NCBI RefSeq assembly: GCF_004319545.1
Contig: NZ_CP036313.1
Span: 372,001 to 436,000, forward strand
Length of the DNA stretch: 64,000 nucleotides
Direction of reading: 5' to 3'
From: Desulfobacter hydrogenophilus
GTDB lineage: Bacteria; Desulfobacterota; Desulfobacteria; Desulfobacterales; Desulfobacteraceae
Shown: in pieces, positions 14,740 to 22,519 of the stretch
Position numbering within the stretch: position 1 is the first letter of the stretch
How the letters are laid out: every line of letters starts with the position of its first letter
The notes under the pieces: model-generated
Database searches by the model: none
Told to the model about the DNA's origin: nothing
The model's input: only the letters and a program-made list of their open reading frames with translations
Position numbers and translations under genes: made by a program

Positions 14740-16115
14740 CTGATTATAACGGATTTGGGGGACCCGTCCGTAAGCCTCCCAATGAACCCGAAATCAAAAG
14801 GTTCTGAAGCCAGTTTTCGTGGTACTGAAATCCGTTAATTCTTTCAAAAGAACTCACATGGCCTTTGTGCTTTACCGTCCATGGATTGAGCGGGGCAAAA
14901 TTTTGGATAAGCGCCCAGGCACGTATGCTGAGATTGGCAGATTTCATAGTGCCGTGAAAATATTTGGTACTGAATAAATGACGATCCATCCGTTGCATCA
15001 GCCGGTCAACCATGTTGCTCGTTCTATGTGCGCCAGGAAAATCATAGGCTTGGGAAAACTGTGGAAGATTATCCCTAAGCTTCTTGATTTTAACTGAAAT
15101 GACGTCTGGAACTTCATTCTCCGTATTTCGACACCATTCGGAAAGCCTCCGAACTCTTTGTGAGAATGATCTTTTGGACTCTGCCCTGAAGCAATCCCAT
15201 AATCTGGTAGCCGCATCCAGGAAATGCTCCTTGTATTTTTTGCGTGAGCGATCACGTATGCCAATAAAAATGTGCAAAAAGCAGGATAGCACGGCTATCT
15301 TGGGAAACAGCTTTTTCCAGGCCTTCTGCGTTGACCGCCATCCGTCGGTATTGACAGTATCCGGCTGATATTCCGGATTAATGCATTCAGCCTCCTCTTT
15401 AAAAACACCGTATGCTTTTTGAAGATCTTTACCGGATGCTGTTTCCGAAACACTGGCTCCTAAAATACAGTTATTTCCGACCGTCGTGGCAATATAGGTC
15501 TTTTCTCCCAAAAGGCGGGTATGTTTTTCATCAGCAGAAAGGTGCTGGGGTAATTTCTCTGGGGACTTGATAGTGGTTCCTACGAGGCTGTACCGGCCAA
15601 TAGTTGCTTCAAGACGATACCAATACATGGGATTTTTCCCGAAACAGTGGCTCAGAGCCCAAAATGGAACAGCAAACTTACGCAAAAATAACGGTTTTTC
15701 AACATCTTTCACAAATCCAGTCATATACGGCATGGCAAAAGACGGCCTTATTGTGTAACTGACACCAGCTATGACTATCCTTCTGATTTTTAATTTCAGT
15801 TTTTTTGAGACTCTGATCTCCTTCATTGTGTATCCGCAGGCGATTTCAGGCGGAAAAATATTAGGATGCTCCTTGATTACCATGTCTAATATTATCCGAA
15901 ATTGGATGGCATGTTTAATGATGCTGTAATATTGTGCTTGACAAACGTGCATACAAATAGTTCGATTCAGTCGGGGAGCGATGTTAGAGGCAGGAGTCAT
16001 AATTTTCCTTAGTTGTTATAGTTGCTGTTCGCACTTCAACCATAACTCAGGAAATGAATTTTTTCAGCCTATTTCATCGCTCCCCGACTCAGTCCCCCAA
16101 ATCCGTTATAATCAG
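14740..16115 (-). mobile_element. DDE insertion sequence with 24-bp perfect inverted repeats
   Basis: The element is 1376 bp. Its ends are perfect 24-bp inverted repeats beginning CTGATTATAACGGATTTGGG (14740-14763 and the complement at 16092-16115). It is flanked by an 8-bp direct repeat AATTTAAG (14732-14739 and 16116-16123), the target duplication. It holds one transposase gene. Its removal together with one copy of the duplication restores the reading frame of the host cyclase. I cannot assign it with certainty to a named IS family; an 8-bp duplication is compatible with several. Confidence 0.92.
14744..16000 (-). CDS. DDE-type transposase
   Basis: This 418-residue protein fills the insertion sequence, and its last codons lie in the terminal repeat. 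Acidic residues that fit the catalytic core are the Asp in HLSADEKHTRL, the Asp in VNTDGWRSTQKAW and an acidic residue near the end of TSNMVDRLMQRMD. The last position usually carries Glu in an SNxxER context; here it is Asp, so the third residue is uncertain. FLHIFIGIRDRSRKKY between the second and third motifs is typical of transposases of this general type. The N-terminal part (about 1-100) may bind the ends. No frameshift is visible, so the element may be active. Confidence 0.8.
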   Translation of the reverse strand: MTPASNIAPRLNRTICMHVCQAQYYSIIKHAIQFRIILDMVIKEHPNIFPPEIACGYTMKEIRVSKKLKLKIRRIVIAGVSYTIRPSFAMPYMTGFVKDVEKPLFLRKFAVPFWALSHCFGKNPMYWYRLEATIGRYSLVGTTIKSPEKLPQHLSADEKHTRLLGEKTYIATTVGNNCILGASVSETASGKDLQKAYGVFKEEAECINPEYQPDTVNTDGWRSTQKAWKKLFPKIAVLSCFLHIFIGIRDRSRKKYKEHFLDAATRLWDCFRAESKRSFSQRVRRLSEWCRNTENEVPDVISVKIKKLRDNLPQFSQAYDFPGAHRTSNMVDRLMQRMDRHLFSTKYFHGTMKSANLSIRAWALIQNFAPLNPWTVKHKGHVSSFERINGFQYHENWLQNLLISGSLGGLRTGPPNPL

Positions 16116-17004: not shown

Positions 17005-17635
17005 AGTCATGACCCCCAGTGAAACTGGGGGCTTGATTGTTAACCGCTCAAAGCGGTCTTTTAAAAGCGCCTAAAGGCGCGGTTTAATCAAACAAGTTCA
17101 TCTGTTCGCAACGTTGATCCTCTTTTTCTTGATGCCGGATATATGCTCGAACAATTTGTTCGTCGATTCCTACTGTTGATGCAAAATAACCTCTGGCCCA
17201 AAATTTTTCACCATTATAGTTCCTTTTTTTACCACAAAACTGACGTGCTATCTGAATAGCACTTTTCCCCTTGATGAACCCAACTACCTGAGCCACGGCA
17301 AATTTGGGTGGAATGGAGATCAGCATATGAACATGGTCTGTCATCAAATGTCCTTCTTCGATCTCGCATTCTTTTTGTTTTGCCAAACCATGTAGTATTG
17401 ACCCCAGTTCCCGACGTAATTGCCCGTAAATAACTTTCTTCCGATATTTTGGAATCCAAACCACATGATACTTGCAATACCACTTTGAATGCTTTAAACT
17501 TTTATAATCTTTCATACAACCTTCCTTTAATAGCTTTGAGCGGCTAACTTAAGGAAGGTTGTTTATTTTCAACTCCCGGAACTGTCAAACTTTTCGAGTC
17601 CTCCACCGGAGGTGGAGGTTTACCCAATAGAATTA
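17004..17635 (-). mobile_element. IS200/IS605-type element, copy 1
   Basis: The segment of about 632 bp is shared with 62613-63244 in the opposite orientation, with a single base difference noticed. It has the subterminal hairpins of the family: CCCCCAGTTTCACTGGGGG near the right end and CCTCCACCTCCGGTGGAGG near the left end. It carries one short transposase gene and no tnpB, and has no target duplication, as expected for single-strand transposition. Borders are uncertain by a few bases because flanks may match by chance. It cuts the cyclase gene between INKLNQK and ELQQKSDKLK. Confidence 0.9.
17084..17515 (-). CDS. tnpA: IS200/IS605 family transposase TnpA (Y1 HUH)
   Basis: This 143-residue single-strand DNA transposase has the HUH motif at residues 61-63 (DHVHML) and a catalytic tyrosine candidate at 125 (RAYIRHQ), both in the usual places for TnpA. 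Length fits IS200-type TnpA (about 130-155). A GGAAGG ribosome-binding site precedes the ATG within a hairpin-forming leader (AACCTTCCTTAAG pairs with CTTTAATAGGAAGG-type sequence), as in IS200, where translation is repressed by leader structure. It differs from the second copy by one residue (Ile/Thr at about 121). Confidence 0.92.
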   Translation of the reverse strand: MKDYKSLKHSKWYCKYHVVWIPKYRKKVIYGQLRRELGSILHGLAKQKECEIEEGHLMTDHVHMLISIPPKFAVAQVVGFIKGKSAIQIARQFCGKKRNYNGEKFWARGYFASTVGIDEQIVRAYIRHQEKEDQRCEQMNLFD

Positions 17636-17750: not shown

Positions 17751-17880
17751 TGATGAGATTCAAATAATGTAACGGTATTATGGATTTAAGATTCTAACAA
17801 AAATGTCAAATTTGTTTTTGATTTAAACTTGTTGTAGCGAAACACCAATAAAAGCAGAGTTACAAAATAATGTAACGGCG
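17751..17880. other. Left transposon end with two transposase-site boxes
   Basis: TGTAACGG occurs at 17768-17775 and again at 17871-17878, each preceded by AAATAA. Repeated boxes at an end are characteristic of TnsB/MuA-type integrase binding sites. Matching inverted boxes occur at the right end. Confidence 0.7.
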
Positions 17881-18033
17881 TAAGAAAAATTCAATAATGA
17901 TCTGTGGTTTGGCGTTTTTCAAAAATGAATCAAACAGAAATCGGCGTCAAAACATATGAGGATAAAATACAGGCAGGCCAACCTCGGATTATACCAAGGA
18001 TGGCCTGTTAATGCAGATAAGTTGTGGTAAGGA

Positions 18034-18696
18034 TTATTGAGGAGGGAGATCTGATATAAATTCCAGGGCAAGATTAATATCAACAAATTGGTGGTTTAAC
18101 TCCTTTGCCCTGTCCCGGCAGTCTGTACAGATTTCTTTAAATTTGCGCATATCGCCCTTAACGGACATATAAATCTGTTCAACGGCTTCCTGCTGGATAT
18201 CTTTGTATTTTTCAATGAAGTCCTCGACCTCTATGGGATACAAAATCAGGGTTTTCAACCGGCTGAGTATATCAGGATGGTTCCGGCTCAAATAAGTTCT
18301 CACATTCGGAAGTCCTGCAAATACGATGGGAACCCCGGCATCAATAATCCGTTTAAGATATGGCCAAACCCGGGTGTCCAAGTCATTGGCCTCATCTATA
18401 ATGATAAAACAATTGGAGAGATTACAGATCATTTTCAGGTACTGGGGAGTTCGGCGGTAGGTGGCGGTGGCCTCATAATTTAATTCCTTAAGTATCGCGG
18501 CCAGGGTTTCATGTATGTTGAACAGAGACTCAACCCATACAGCATGGAGCTTTTTGGGATGCAGCAATTTTAAAAACCGAGTTTTTCCTGCACCAAAATC
18601 ACCCTCCATGAGCACGCTTTGGCCTCTGTAGATCCGGTTATAAGTGGCAGCCAAGTATGAGACCCTTCGTTTATCACTGATAAAATCCTCTTTCAT
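18034..18696 (-). CDS. TnsC/TniB/MuB-like AAA+ transposition ATPase
   Basis: This 220-residue ATPase has Walker A GDFGAGKT at about residues 32-39 and Walker B CFIIIDEAND at about 96-105, with a VWVESLFNIHETLAAILKEL helix region between. It matches the target-selection ATPases (TnsC, TniB, MuB, IstB-like ExeA group) that recruit the integrase to target DNA. I place the start at the ATG at 18696, which overlaps the integrase stop as ATGA and has GGAG 8 bases upstream. A longer frame from 18756 would overlap the integrase gene. It is the last gene of the transposon operon. Confidence 0.85.
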   Translation of the reverse strand: MKEDFISDKRRVSYLAATYNRIYRGQSVLMEGDFGAGKTRFLKLLHPKKLHAVWVESLFNIHETLAAILKELNYEATATYRRTPQYLKMICNLSNCFIIIDEANDLDTRVWPYLKRIIDAGVPIVFAGLPNVRTYLSRNHPDILSRLKTLILYPIEVEDFIEKYKDIQQEAVEQIYMSVKGDMRKFKEICTDCRDRAKELNHQFVDINLALEFISDLPPQ

Positions 18697-20360
18697 GTTA
18701 TGTCTCCATGGGATGCATAAATGGCTACATGGTTCGTATTTAACGATTTTTGGCAATCAAGCATAAATGCATTGAACAGGGCCTGATTTTTACGGTCATC
18801 CGGCTGGTTTATCTTTTTTGTGTAATCCGCGTACCTTGATTGATTATGATCAAGCACTTGTTCCGCCCGGGCCAGGGTGAGGCCCTTATGAAAAACGTCG
18901 ACTAAAACAGGCCGGTCAACGGCCATATTGTGCTTTTCTAAAAGAGCGATAATGGTGTCAAGTTCATCAGGCGGCACAGGCGAAGGTTCTGGTGCCGGCG
19001 GTCTGTCAAACGGCTTTTTTGCAATGGCTTCGCCCAACAGTATACCGTCTTCACCCTGCTCAAAAATAAAAAGCTTGTCCTTGTATTTGGATATTTTCAC
19101 CGGTGTGCTTTTATGTTTGCTGAACTTATCTGCACCACGGGTCACATAATAATCGCGCTTGTCATGGCGGATGGTCCTGGTTTTGGATACGGTGGCTTTG
19201 ATTTTCCTGTAGCCGTATTTCATATATTCCTGAACCTGGTCCGGGGTAAAATTCAGGGTATCTGCCTGGTTTGATAAAAAATCATCAAATTTCTGTGCCG
19301 GCACCCAGGCACTGACCACCCCGTCTTCGGTAAAATAATGTTGTGTATGATTATGTTCGTTACGATATTCGCTGAGCATAGTGCTGCTCCTTAGTTCCTG
19401 AAGGCTTATATCAAGAAGGGTTACAGTAATTTTTTCCTTTCTTCCCCGCTTGAAGTCATATTCGGTAACGGTTTTCACAATCCTGTCCTCAAAGGCTTTG
19501 ATAATACGTATTTCAAAATTGTGCAGGCTCCGGTGTGAAGATTCTAGATGTGCCTTATCTTTGGGTGAATACGCCTTTGAAAAATCCGGTGCCAAATAGA
19601 AGCCTTGCGGTGTAGAATGCTTCAGGTTAATGGCATTGATGGGGCGTTTTAGATTTAAAAATCCTTTTGCCTGGTCAGGTCTGATACCAATTTTTTGCAA
19701 AGGCAAAGGGGTACTCAACAAAAAACGGGTAAAAAGATCCACAGAGTTCAGGCTGCTTTCGGTAAAATAAAAGTCCAGAATAAACATTTTCCTGGAAGCG
19801 GTATCAAATATTTCAATTACCTGTGGTTTTTGCCAGTTACCGTGTTCATCTCTGATCCTTAAATATTGAAATTTACAGCCGTCAACCTGGATCAAAGCAA
19901 ATACCGGCACCGACTTGAAGGCATGCATTACCGGGACCTGATCCTGCTTATCCTCTTTTTCCAGGTAAAATTTGAGATTTTCCCTTTTGACACATCGCCG
20001 AAGTGCCGGAAGACTGATGGTTCTGCCCAGCTCTTGTTCAAGCCAGTGATGATAATTTTTAATGGTTCTGGCTTTCCGGGTGATAAAAATGAATCCCTGG
20101 GATGAGGGGTCGCATGACGCCTTGACCATCTCAATAAACCGTCTTTTGGTTTGCTCATCTATTGCTCTGGGCCGTCCGCTGCACTTACGGCCTTCCATAA
20201 TTCCTTTTTCAACCAGTAAAAGGGGCGCCGGGATAATTCCGGTTTTCTTGTACTGGTCCTTGTAATATTTTTTGGACCGTCTCTTGGTAGATCCGGTTTT
20301 ATTCATGATTTTTTTGTGCAGCAGTAAATGAAAGCGGTCATCAATAGTCAGGTCATCCAT
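18693..20360 (-). CDS. TnsB/MuA-like DDE integrase
   Basis: This 555-residue protein has a helix-turn-helix-rich N-terminal region (about 20-140), an rve-type catalytic core and a C-terminal DNA-binding and basic region. The catalytic triad is visible as Asp in LIQVDGCK (about 160), Asp in GIRPDQAKGF (about 229) and Glu in KAHLESSHRSL (about 273). The spacing and the AHLES context are those of TnsB/TniA/MuA integrases. I choose the ATG at 20360, with AGGGGGCAG upstream, 8 bases inside the end of the preceding gene; a longer frame from 20471 would overlap that gene by more than 100 bases. It should cut and join the TG...CA ends. Confidence 0.88.
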   Translation of the reverse strand: MDDLTIDDRFHLLLHKKIMNKTGSTKRRSKKYYKDQYKKTGIIPAPLLLVEKGIMEGRKCSGRPRAIDEQTKRRFIEMVKASCDPSSQGFIFITRKARTIKNYHHWLEQELGRTISLPALRRCVKRENLKFYLEKEDKQDQVPVMHAFKSVPVFALIQVDGCKFQYLRIRDEHGNWQKPQVIEIFDTASRKMFILDFYFTESSLNSVDLFTRFLLSTPLPLQKIGIRPDQAKGFLNLKRPINAINLKHSTPQGFYLAPDFSKAYSPKDKAHLESSHRSLHNFEIRIIKAFEDRIVKTVTEYDFKRGRKEKITVTLLDISLQELRSSTMLSEYRNEHNHTQHYFTEDGVVSAWVPAQKFDDFLSNQADTLNFTPDQVQEYMKYGYRKIKATVSKTRTIRHDKRDYYVTRGADKFSKHKSTPVKISKYKDKLFIFEQGEDGILLGEAIAKKPFDRPPAPEPSPVPPDELDTIIALLEKHNMAVDRPVLVDVFHKGLTLARAEQVLDHNQSRYADYTKKINQPDDRKNQALFNAFMLDCQKSLNTNHVAIYASHGDIT

Positions 20361-20916
20361 TATCTGCCCCCTTTGATACAATCTTTTCGTATATGACCCG
20401 ATGCCACAACAATGCTGCCTGGCGGGAGGTCTTCTGCCAATGATCATGCTGAGCCACACGGACCTGTTCAAGCATTGCCTTTACAACAGCCATGTATTCA
20501 TGGGTAATTCGATCTGTCAGATCCGGTTTACTTACCGGAGCCGTTTTCTGGTCCTCAATAAATTTTTTGATATTTCGTGCGGTCAGTTCCATGCCACTGT
20601 TTATAATCGCCCTCCAGATACGGCGTTGTTCTATGGAATCCATTTGAGTAAGGGGGCGGATCTGGGATTCGTTGGCCGGCAGTTTGTCTCCAATTGGAGA
20701 CAGGTTGTAAATTACTTCATAGGCTCGAATCAGCCGGTAAGCATGGGCTTTGCCCATATCCCACCGTGCCCTGGTATATGCCTCAAATGACTCAAACAGA
20801 GCCTGCTTGTACAAACGATTCTCACGAATTTCTTTCAAGGCTTGGCCGATTTTGTAAAAACATTCTTGATTTCGACCAATCAGGGTTTCAAGCTCAAGCA
20901 GCCGTTCCATACTCAC
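20353..20916 (-). CDS. Transposon-borne helical protein, putative DNA-binding accessory
   Basis: This 187-residue helical protein starts at GTG 20916, overlapping the previous stop as GTGA (an ATG two codons later is an alternative). The central region (about 55-105) reads MGKAHAYRLIRAYEVIYNL followed by LPANESQIRPLTQM, a combination I know from DNA-binding proteins of plasmids and phages related to ParB/KorB-type helix-turn-helix modules. Its place inside an operon with overlapping starts and stops, between the CHC2-like gene and the integrase, suggests a structural or targeting role in transposition. The function is not established. Confidence 0.55.
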   Translation of the reverse strand: MSMERLLELETLIGRNQECFYKIGQALKEIRENRLYKQALFESFEAYTRARWDMGKAHAYRLIRAYEVIYNLSPIGDKLPANESQIRPLTQMDSIEQRRIWRAIINSGMELTARNIKKFIEDQKTAPVSKPDLTDRITHEYMAVVKAMLEQVRVAQHDHWQKTSRQAALLWHRVIYEKIVSKGADNG

Positions 20917-21269
20917 TGCCCTCCCGGCATAGGCCTGCCGACCATAGCGGCAAGGGCCGTCAATTTTGCGGCCTGAACCTGGGGTACAGTATTTATTTGT
21001 TTCAAAAACAAGACACTATCCCTAAATCCATAGCCCTTGATTTTCATGACAAGGTCAATGGTATTAAAATTTTTTTCGCATCTGAAGCACCTGGCCAGGT
21101 TCGTGGCTGGATTTACAGCGGTTTGAAATTCATTGCACAAAGGGCATAGAAAACGAAAATAACCATCTCTAATCTTGGATAGAATCTGTAAATGGTCCCT
21201 GATCAACACATCTACAGGGATATTGTTTCTCAGTTCAAATAATTGCCGGGATGAAAATCTGTTTTTCAC
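20913..21269 (-). CDS. CHC2-like zinc-finger protein of the transposon
   Basis: This 118-residue protein resembles the zinc-binding domain of DnaG-type primases: C42-P-L-C45 and C61-F-R-C64, then FNTIDLVMKIKGYGFRDSVLFL. Canonical CHC2 fingers have one histidine among the four ligands; here all four are cysteines. No primase catalytic (TOPRIM) domain follows, so it is a stand-alone DNA-binding finger rather than a primase. A strong AAGGAGG site precedes the GTG start. It opens the operon leading to the integrase and ATPase; recognising single-stranded or forked DNA at transposon ends or replication forks is a speculative role. Confidence 0.7.
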   Translation of the reverse strand: MKNRFSSRQLFELRNNIPVDVLIRDHLQILSKIRDGYFRFLCPLCNEFQTAVNPATNLARCFRCEKNFNTIDLVMKIKGYGFRDSVLFLKQINTVPQVQAAKLTALAAMVGRPMPGGQ

Positions 21270-21339
21270 AAGACACCTCCTTATTTTTAAAATTTCAGGT
21301 GCTTTTTTATATCACCGGTTAGAGTCGCCTGTCAGTTGC

Positions 21340-21510
21340 CTCTTAAACTGAGATAGAGATTATTCTGTTGATATCTACTTGTATTATCAGTTGGTTATCC
21401 TCATGATGTCTCTTAGAATCAAAACTCGATTAGTCTGTTAATATCCCTTTATATTACAATGAGTTATTCCAATCATGTATCTTAAAATCTATACTCGATT
21501 AGTCGTTTAT
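21340..21510. repeat. Three imperfect 70-bp tandem repeats upstream of the transposon operon
   Basis: Units start at about 21340 (CTCTTAAACTGAGAT), 21410 (CTCTTAGAATCAAAACTCGA) and 21479 (ATCTTAAAATCTATACTCGA). The second and third share ACTCGATTAGTC; the first and second share CTGTTRATATC and a GRTTATYC element. The third is truncated. They lie between two minus-strand genes, directly upstream of the CHC2-integrase-ATPase operon, and could be operators or integrase-binding sites. Confidence 0.6.
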
Positions 21511-21523
21511 GCCAGAGGGTCTT

Positions 21524-21901
21524 TTATGGGAATCCCTGTATTTTTTCATTGTTATGGCTGATAACCTGGGTAACCAGATATTGAATGATAATTGCCGGCT
21601 TGATCCCGTATTCTGCTATAATGACTTCCATTGGCAAAACAGGTTTTGTCTGTTTTTGATATGAAAGCGAAGGAAGGTTCCCAGATGTTTGTTGCTCCTC
21701 AGCTTCTTCAAGTTTTTTTGCCAGATAATTGTTTTTGCAAACAGCTTTGTTTTTCCTGTTCCACTTTTCACATTGCCTTCGATGAAGCTCTTTTTGGCAA
21801 GCCGAACGACATGTTTTCTGCCGCCCTTTTTGTCTTACATCAGGGGTGAACCATTTCCGGCAAATAGAGCAAGGTCGTCTTCCACGTGAATTCTTTGCCA
21901 T
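21524..21901 (-). CDS. Small zinc-finger protein at the transposon right end
   Basis: This 125-residue protein has four cysteines in CSICRKWFTP and GRQKTCRSACQKELHRRQ (C11, C14, C31, C35), followed by a basic segment (about 36-60) and a helical tail. Similar short fingers occur near transposase genes in environmental proteobacteria and planctomycetes (recalled, not searched). It is transcribed in the same direction as the operon but separated by the 70-bp repeats, so it may be separately controlled and could bind those repeats. The function is unknown. Confidence 0.6.
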   Translation of the reverse strand: MAKNSRGRRPCSICRKWFTPDVRQKGRQKTCRSACQKELHRRQCEKWNRKNKAVCKNNYLAKKLEEAEEQQTSGNLPSLSYQKQTKPVLPMEVIIAEYGIKPAIIIQYLVTQVISHNNEKIQGFP

Positions 21902-22004
21902 TATTTCTTCTCCAAAATTTGAATCAGGGAGATTATATGTACCAAATTTTGAAAGAAGCAGCGGCGAGGTCTATCGGCGGGATAGGCGGGGTATGATTTT
22001 TTAT

Positions 22005-22097
22005 TTGATTGGCGGGATATAGCGGCGGGATATCTGCCCGTTACATTATTTCGTCATGAAACTGCGGGGTACGCGTTACACTTTTTGAATCTTACCA
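22005..22097. other. Right transposon end with inverted boxes
   Basis: CCGTTACA at 22038-22045 and CGTTACA at 22074-22080 are inverted copies of the left TGTAACGG boxes. GGCGGGATAT occurs twice at about 22012-22032. The tip TTTGAATCTTACCA ends at 22097 before the target duplication. Confidence 0.7.
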
Positions 22098-22519
22098 AAC
22101 GGTACGGTGAAAAGGTTTGCGTGCTTATGCTCGATATTGATAAGTTCAAGGATGTCAATGATACGTTCGGGCACGATTGTGGTGATGCGGTGCTAACCCA
22201 ATTGTGCTCTCTGGTAAGCAAAAAGTTACGACGTGTAGATGTATTCGGCCGGTGGGGTGGAGAAGAATTTATCGTGATCTGTCCGGGGACATCCCTGGAA
22301 AATGGTGTCAAGGTTGCTGAAAGTTTAAGATCAAAAGTTGAGGCCCATTCCTTTACGCCTGTTCCCCAAGTCACGGTCAGTCTTGGTGTCAGTGCTTTTC
22401 ATAAGAATGACCATGCATACTGCGATGCCCTGAAGCGGGCTGACGTTGCATTATATGAATCAAAACGCACAGGCAGAAACCGTGTATCCAGCAGATGCGA
22501 TGAGAAAAAGATCAACTAA
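22098..22519 (+). pseudogene. Diguanylate cyclase, piece 4 of 4 (catalytic GGDEF half)
   Basis: This fragment encodes LMLDIDKFKDVNDTFGH, the substrate-binding and metal-binding part of GGDEF domains, and GRWGGEEFIVICPG with an intact GGEEF active site, then SLGVSAF and ALKRADVALYESKRTGRNRV to a normal end. No RxxD inhibitory site precedes the GGEEF motif. A new frame opens at 22085 within the transposon tip, but no ribosome-binding site or plausible start was seen, so the piece is probably silent. Confidence 0.88.

What the first reader, a model, noticed from the sequence alone, without database searches (positions are those of the whole stretch)
17751..22097. Mu/Tn7-like transposon carrying a CHC2-type finger and no evident cargo
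Operon: CHC2-like finger, ParB-like helical protein, DDE integrase (D160, D229, E273), AAA ATPase, all with overlapping starts and stops; plus a separate small zinc-finger gene. Ends have paired TGTAACGG boxes and a 6-bp duplication rather than the 5 bp of Mu, Tn7 and Tn402. A primase-type finger in a transposition operon hints at targeting of replication forks or single-stranded DNA.
Basis: partly seen in the sequence, partly recalled or inferred. Interest (0 to 1): 0.75.

Follow-up and report, generated by a model that had tools for sequence, protein, structure and literature searches.

The report
Compact jumping gene with swappable parts
A small, recently active bacterial jumping gene related to the transposable phages Mu and B3 carries a primase-like zinc finger, and the same kind of zinc finger sits as an accessory part in several other kinds of jumping gene, one of them with an unrelated enzyme, which points to a shared but unknown step in DNA mobility.

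Summary
The element is 4347 bp (17751-22097), has TG...CA ends, a 6-bp duplication (AACGGT) and five genes. The host genome has 10 intact copies and one interrupted; 10 of these 11 have exact 6-bp duplications. Over five genomes, 32 of 43 evaluable copies have exactly 6 bp, one has 5, ten have none. Six bp is not odd: B3-type transposable phages make 6 bp (PMC8705779, passages).

The transposase is a divergent member of the profile that holds MuA, B3, TniA and TnsB; its nearest non-element relatives are Mu-like phages. The helical gene is constant. The CHC2 gene is not: 32 of 38 scorable representatives have CHC2 and 6 have a winged-helix gene in its place, with at least five switches on the tree. 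One pair keeps a 90% identical backbone while the cassette is replaced.

The same CHC2 subfamily lies beside other recombinase genes at 36 of 40 hand-chosen non-element loci: 14 IS21-like, 14 TniA-like with ExeA-type ATPase, 8 tyrosine-recombinase trios. Fork targeting is not supported: 24 copies co-directional, 28 head-on. CHC2 is a portable accessory; its job is inferred only.

The parts
17751..22097 (.). whole element, 4347 bp, TG...CA
   Evidence: boundaries from 10 intact copies of equal length in the same genome
17745..17750 (.). target duplication AACGGT, left copy
22098..22103 (.). target duplication AACGGT, right copy
17751..17774 (+). terminal inverted repeat, gene-downstream end, first transposase site (core TGTAACG at offset 17); binding is inferred
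17871..17877 (+). inner site of the same end (core at offset 120)
22074..22097 (-). terminal inverted repeat, gene-upstream end, first site (core at offset 17)
22039..22045 (-). inner site of the gene-upstream end (core at offset 52)
21524..21901 (-). small Cys-rich (zinc-finger type A) gene, 125 aa
   Evidence: no Pfam match; type A in 24, type B in 6, unscored in 12 of 42 representatives
20913..21269 (-). stand-alone CHC2 zinc ribbon, 118 aa, four invariant Cys (42, 45, 61, 64), no TOPRIM
   Evidence: PF01807 1.1e-7; alignment of 16
20353..20916 (-). HEL: all-helical, ParB-like protein, 187 aa as listed
18693..20360 (-). DDE transposase, 555 aa, D160 D229 E273
18034..18696 (-). AAA+ ATPase of MuB type, 220 aa
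   Evidence: AAA_22 1e-6; phrog_296 4.1e-12

Best explanation
An autonomous, cargo-free transposon of a divergent Mu/B3-type family. Shown: constant ends with two sites at fixed spacing per end, 6-bp duplication, DDE transposase with MuB-type ATPase, many near-identical copies, constant HEL gene. Inferred from knowledge of the family: the DDE protein pairs the ends, nicks the 3' ends and joins them to target DNA 6 bp apart; the ATPase selects and presents target DNA; since none of the five proteins looks like a second-strand nuclease or a resolvase, the joined product is most likely replicated, and copies are later reshuffled by recombination. Shown: the Cys-rich gene and the gene in slot 2 (CHC2 or a winged helix) are exchanged as a cassette, and CHC2 proteins of the same subfamily stand beside recombinase genes of other element types, among them tyrosine recombinases. 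Inferred: CHC2 serves a step common to these elements and not tied to DDE chemistry. First choice (about 0.4): hand-off of the joined or nicked intermediate to host replication; control of operon expression is nearly as likely.
For: Copies and duplications. Ends. Family. Constant HEL and exchangeable slot 2. Cassette swap L020 against L021/L022. CHC2 in other element types. Reciprocal duplications in inverted copies L136/L140. No orientation bias.
Against: No experiment. The replicative step is not shown: the ten copies without matching duplications and the reciprocal pair fit homologous recombination as well, and 32 of 43 copies have clean duplications. The transposase match to the MuA profile is weak, the phage relative L039 does not reach that profile at all, and hhalign to single MuA, TniA and TnsB sequences was not significant. 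The role of CHC2 rests on gene neighbourhood alone; the 40 loci were hand-chosen, from one class, and no random-gene control was run. IS21-like and TniA-like systems are distant relatives of Mu's, so only the tyrosine-recombinase case is truly unrelated.
Confidence: 0.7

Rival explanations
1. CHC2, the winged helix, the Cys-rich protein and HEL are DNA-binding regulators of the operon and do nothing in the reaction itself.
For: Small DNA-binding-type proteins, translationally coupled to the transposase; one type replaces another; shared with elements of other chemistry.
Against: A CHC2 primase-type ribbon is an unusual repressor; I found no operator and did not look for promoters.
Confidence: 0.35
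2. One reading: CHC2 aims the element at replication forks or single-stranded DNA, as TnsE does for Tn7.
For: Primase fingers read single-stranded template (recalled). In G000 and G593, two genomes of one genus, copies lie nearer to dnaA than uniform (mean normalised distance 0.32 and 0.26). A target selector shared by a Tn7-like element and a tyrosine-recombinase element is published (TnsF, PMC10293859, passages).
Against: Orientation to replication is even, 24 to 28. In the three genomes outside the genus 26 copies are uniform (p = 0.99). Elements with a winged helix in place of CHC2 exist.
Confidence: 0.12
3. The element is a decaying remnant of a Mu-like prophage and not a transposon family of its own.
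For: The nearest non-element transposases found are in Mu-like phages.
Against: Length 4305-4588 bp in seven representatives, a constant gene set, many near-identical copies with duplications in several genomes; element transposases form one branch (95/99, with long branches nearby).
Confidence: 0.03

Closest known systems
Phage B3 and B3/Tn552-type transposable prophages
   Same: TG-CA ends and 6-bp duplication (PMC8705779, passages); DDE plus AAA+ pair; both transposases match phrog_310
   Different: No phage genes; far lower profile score (5.6e-8 against 9.8e-134); extra Cys-rich, CHC2 and HEL genes
Phage Mu (MuA/MuB)
   Same: Profile membership of both proteins; several sites per end (recalled for Mu)
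   Different: 6 bp, not 5; no phage genes; the phage relatives have 140-700 more N-terminal or total residues than the element's 555
Tn7 and Tn402/Tn5053
   Same: DDE of the TnsB/TniA superfamily with an AAA+ partner
   Different: No TnsA, TniQ/TnsD, TnsE or resolvase found; 6 bp; no cargo
IS21-like elements, TniA-like/ExeA elements and tyrosine-recombinase trios that carry CHC2
   Same: CHC2 of the same subfamily beside the recombinase genes; some also have a Cys-rich or ParB-like gene
   Different: Other recombinases and gene order; in the IS21-like and TniA-like loci CHC2 follows the ATPase, in the trios it precedes the recombinases
DnaG primase zinc-binding domain
   Same: PF01807 over residues 10-93
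   Different: Four Cys instead of Cys-His-Cys-Cys (the latter recalled); no TOPRIM domain

Membership tests
Mu/B3-type transposition module | DDE transposase of the MuA/B3 profile | tested here: met
   phrog_310 5.6e-8, weak; D160/D229/E273 invariant. hhalign to single MuA not significant
Mu/B3-type transposition module | MuB-type AAA+ ATPase | tested here: met
   phrog_296 4.1e-12; MuB and B3 B hit the same profile
Mu/B3-type transposition module | TG...CA ends, 6-bp duplication (B3) | tested here: met
   32 of 43 evaluable copies exactly 6 bp, 1 of 5 bp, 10 without
Mu/B3-type transposable phage | phage structural and lysis genes | tested here: not met
   five genes only; same length in all intact host copies
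Mu/B3-type transposition module | replicative transposition | not testable with these tools
   L136/L140 reciprocal duplications fit it but also fit homologous recombination
Tn7-like | TnsA nuclease and TniQ/TnsD selector | tested here: not met
   no match among the five proteins
Tn7-like | 5-bp duplication | tested here: not met
Tn402/Tn5053 | TniA + TniB + TniQ + resolvase, 5-bp duplication | tested here: not met
   no TniQ, no resolvase, 6 bp
IS21 | IstA/IstB pair | tested here: not met
   no IstB (PF01695) match for the ATPase, while L201's ATPase scores 1.3e-47
DnaG-type primase | TOPRIM catalytic domain | tested here: not met
   118 aa with the CHC2 domain only

The most novel reading that the evidence does not exclude
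Stand-alone CHC2 zinc ribbons and the winged-helix proteins that replace them form a portable accessory cassette taken up by several recombinase systems (Mu/B3-like, IS21-like and TniA-like DDE elements, and the unrelated tyrosine-recombinase trios) for one shared step, most likely the hand-over of a recombination intermediate to the host's replication machinery by a primase-like finger.
Probability: 0.3. Interest if true: 0.88.

Novelty: new variant of a known kind. Interest (0 to 1): 0.72.

Why it matters
It turns one odd operon into a testable pattern: a primase-type zinc ribbon recurs beside four kinds of recombinase operon, one of them chemically unrelated, and is swapped for a winged helix at least five times within one family. 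If it acts in the reaction, mobile elements share an accessory step that has not been assigned; if it is a regulator, it is a control module shared across element types. The family also adds a deep branch of Mu-type transposases and a group of Mu-like phages without a match in the phage collection searched.

Tried and rejected
Tn7-like filing: rejected (no TnsA, no TniQ, 6 bp). Fork targeting: tested by orientation and distance to dnaA, not supported. Phage remnant: rejected by copy number and constancy. CHC2 as a primase: rejected (no TOPRIM). The transposase model (mean pLDDT 61) was too uncertain to search with; the HEL model (mean pLDDT 67) gave no match at E <= 0.001. Sequence search of solved structures gave one match at E 0.15 to an acetyltransferase for the transposase and none for the ATPase. 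hhalign to single MuA, TniA and TnsB was not significant. tblastn of the element transposase against phages and plasmids, and of L039's against phages, found nothing.

Rows dropped: six copies (four of G593, two of G565) lacked a recognisable end and were not counted; three interrupted copies of G565 were read only by eye (one with, two without a match); three G591 copies were not counted because their ends were not settled. In one search, 100 transposases were reduced to 42; four have no slot-2 call (L033 and L037 at contig edges, L074 phage-like, L118 disrupted). In one search the row L156 scores both CHC2 and winged helix; the latter belongs to a neighbouring IS21-like remnant. The IS control used 27 of 34 matches in G000 and 32 of 35 in G593, since the listing was cut; no control was computed for G565 and G617, although searched them. 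In one search I chose 40 non-element matches by hand and left out the others, mostly fragments, further copies in one genome, or matches at contig edges; four of the 40 (L241, L246, L264, L267) showed no recombinase gene. IstA labels rest on position beside IstB and on my reading, since Pfam gave only helix-turn-helix matches for L201's. PMC4747519 and PMC3091744, which hold the word CHC2, were seen only in listings.
Full report
THE ELEMENT. The window holds a 4347-bp insertion at 17751-22097 in a GGDEF gene, flanked by AACGGT on both sides. Its tips read TGATGAGATTCAAATAATGTAACGG and, from the other side, TGGTAAGATTCAAAAAGTGTAACGCG. Five genes lie on the minus strand: a separate small Cys-rich gene, then CHC2, an all-helical protein (HEL), the DDE transposase and an AAA+ ATPase, the last four overlapping by 4, 8 and 4 bp. 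Pfam finds PF01807 in CHC2 (1.1e-7) and AAA_22 in the ATPase (1e-6), nothing in the Cys-rich gene, and only matches below the curated cut-offs in the transposase and HEL.

COPIES AND DUPLICATIONS. The host genome (G000) has 11 copies: 10 intact, all 4347 bp, and one interrupted. Ten of 11 have an exact 6-bp duplication. Elsewhere the exact 6-bp counts are 6 of 11 evaluable in G593, 11 of 12 in G617, 2 of 3 in G161 (the third is 5 bp) and 3 of 6 in G565: in all 32 of 43, one of 5 bp, ten without a match. Six further copies lacked a recognisable end. In G593 the copies L136 and L140, in opposite orientation, have exchanged duplications (AACCAT/ACCCAA and ACCCAA/AACCAT), as left by inversion between two copies or by intramolecular replicative transposition; a third copy, L132, also has ACCCAA on its right, which I cannot place. 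The 32 duplications show a weak centre preference: C third in 19, G fourth in 24 of 32.

ENDS. In seven representatives TGTAACG (one mismatch allowed in two elements of G617) sits at offset 17 at both tips, at 49-52 near the gene-upstream tip in six of seven, and at 119-121 near the other in six of seven. Fixed, unequal spacing of two sites per end is what one expects of Mu- or Tn7-type ends (recalled).

WHERE THE TRANSPOSASE BELONGS. The PHROG profile that scores MuA 8.6e-199, B3 A 9.8e-134, TniA of R751 7.8e-48 and TnsB of R721 2.2e-31 scores this protein 5.6e-8, the relative L074 0.04 and the phage relative L039 not at all; MuB's profile scores the ATPase 4.1e-12. So it is in that superfamily but further out than TnsB or TniA, and the sequence evidence is thin. 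hhalign with single sequences was not significant. Genome and viral contigs gave 26 and 5 loci. L039, L040, L042, L043 and L044 have transposases 24-38% identical to the window's. For L039, L042 and L043 I found repressor-, head-protease- or Mor-type late-activator genes nearby; I take these loci as Mu-like phages, L040 and L044 by analogy. The 50,697 phage records have no relative of the element's or L039's transposase, the plasmids none of the element's. 'Six instead of five' is explained by B3 phage and B3/Tn552-type prophages, which leave 6 bp, mostly with TG-CA ends (PMC8705779, passages).

DISTRIBUTION. Matches occur in 22 of 86 genomes of the host's family, 22 of 291 of its order, 40 of 389 of its class and 2 of 297 drawn over the phylum, own genome included; the draws overlap. 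A few contigs carry other labels, which for short metagenome contigs may be binning errors.

WHICH GENES ARE CONSTANT. I scored loci with profiles of seven gene types and reduced 100 transposases to 42 representatives. HEL is found in 40 of 42; the others are L037 (contig edge) and L074 (phage-like). Slot 2 is CHC2 in 32 and a winged helix in 6; 4 could not be scored. The tree needs at least five changes of slot 2 even by well-supported branches alone; random shuffles need 5.7 on average, so the label is scarcely clustered. The Cys-rich gene has two unlike types, A in 24, B in 6, unscored in 12; the winged helix occurs with B where both are scored (4 of 4), CHC2 with A in 24 and B in 2. The clearest case is L020 against L021 and L022: 90% nucleotide identity over 2322 bp from the start of HEL to the end of the shorter contig, and 90% over 58 bp near the tip, with no similarity found in the Cys-rich/slot-2 stretch between. 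This is a cassette swap.

THE CASSETTE IS NOT PRIVATE TO THIS FAMILY. A winged helix after a Cys-rich gene also stands before what I read as IstA/IstB genes in L173 and L177. Searching eight genomes with the CHC2 alignment showed CHC2 outside the element. In the host itself L199 carries a Cys-rich gene, CHC2 and three tyrosine recombinases (PF00589 2.3e-29, 1.2e-17, 8.7e-26), and L198 a broken copy of the same. L201 has a gene with a KorB match just under its cut-off, an IstA-like gene, IstB (PF01695 1.3e-47) and CHC2; L204 has a transposase with Mu-transpos_C (2.5e-7) and rve (below cut-off), an AAA_22 ATPase (1.4e-16) and CHC2. From a class-wide search (68 of 389 genomes at E <= 1e-8) I fetched 40 non-element loci by hand choice. 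By comparison with those reference proteins, 8 lie beside tyrosine-recombinase trios, 14 beside IS21-like genes (in L260 IstB alone), 14 beside TniA-like plus ExeA-type genes (L247 has a trio as well), and 4 beside none. Two IS21-like loci (L252, L256) also carry the type-A Cys-rich gene. There was no random-gene control. IS21's and Tn7-type proteins are relatives of Mu's (PMC10293859, passage), so the unrelated case is the tyrosine recombinases.

DOES IT TARGET FORKS? With dnaA as origin and the opposite point as terminus, 24 of 52 copies in five genomes run with replication and 28 against it (p = 0.68). Tn7's fork pathway is strongly one-sided (recalled). Pooled distances to dnaA depart from uniform (p = 0.006 with 49 copies; 0.015 with 52), but only through G000 and G593, two genomes of one genus; the 26 copies of the other three are uniform (p = 0.99). 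Against IS4-type transposases as control the two give p = 0.034 and 0.089 (from a cut listing). GC skew was not examined. I take this as no support for fork targeting, with a local effect left open.

HOW IT LIKELY WORKS. Shown: ends, duplication, conserved acidic triad, partner ATPase, copies, constant HEL, exchangeable cassette. Inferred: Mu-type strand transfer, probably followed by replication, since no second-strand nuclease or resolvase was recognised; recombination between copies then scrambles duplications. The accessory role is open. Because CHC2 is shared with tyrosine recombinases, a role bound to DDE chemistry is unlikely. I favour replication hand-off (about 0.4) over control of expression (about 0.35) and target choice (about 0.12). 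Precedents: TnsF, shared by Tn6022 and the tyrosine-recombinase element Tsy, is a target selector (PMC10293859, passages); GinD, a small protein, is essential with a recombinase trio (PMC5385486, passages). Passages on recombinase-in-trio elements that I saw do not mention CHC2 (PMC3414803; PMC10214605).

NOVELTY. Searches of the open-access library for CHC2 with transposon, transposase, transposable element, IS21, or TniA/MuB, and related terms, listed no paper on this association (listings, several of them cut). Subscription papers, among them the 2013 survey of recombinase-in-trio elements and the 2018 survey of Tn552-related phages, were not available to me. I call the element a new variant of a known kind; the cross-family CHC2/winged-helix cassette is the most novel part.

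Noticed in passing
window 17084-17515: IS200-type Y1 transposase (PF01797, 1.6e-38) just before the interrupted GGDEF gene.
   Followed up: no
window 14744-16000; L202:1876-3135: A Mutator/MULE-like transposase (weak Pfam); a close relative by eye splits an IstB gene of an IS21-like CHC2 element in G591.
   Followed up: no
L055 (G000:C1 near 296290): A lone copy of this element's gene-upstream end (24 bp plus an inner box) beside a resolvase and, by eye, a Tn3-type transposase; no second end found in 7 kb.
   Followed up: partly
L198, L199 (G000:C1 about 4.19 and 4.23 Mb): Two tyrosine-recombinase trios with Cys-rich and CHC2 genes in the host genome, one intact, one broken.
   Followed up: partly
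G000 and G593: Copies of the element lie nearer to dnaA than expected in these two genomes of one genus, not in three others.
   Followed up: partly
L156/L162 (G617): A copy of the element interrupts the winged-helix gene of an IS21-like element.
   Followed up: partly
L089 and L096 (G565): Two copies share the same right flank but not the left; unexplained.
   Followed up: no
L044:841-4506: Phage relative whose transposase frame is 1221 aa with a long extra N-terminal part.
   Followed up: no
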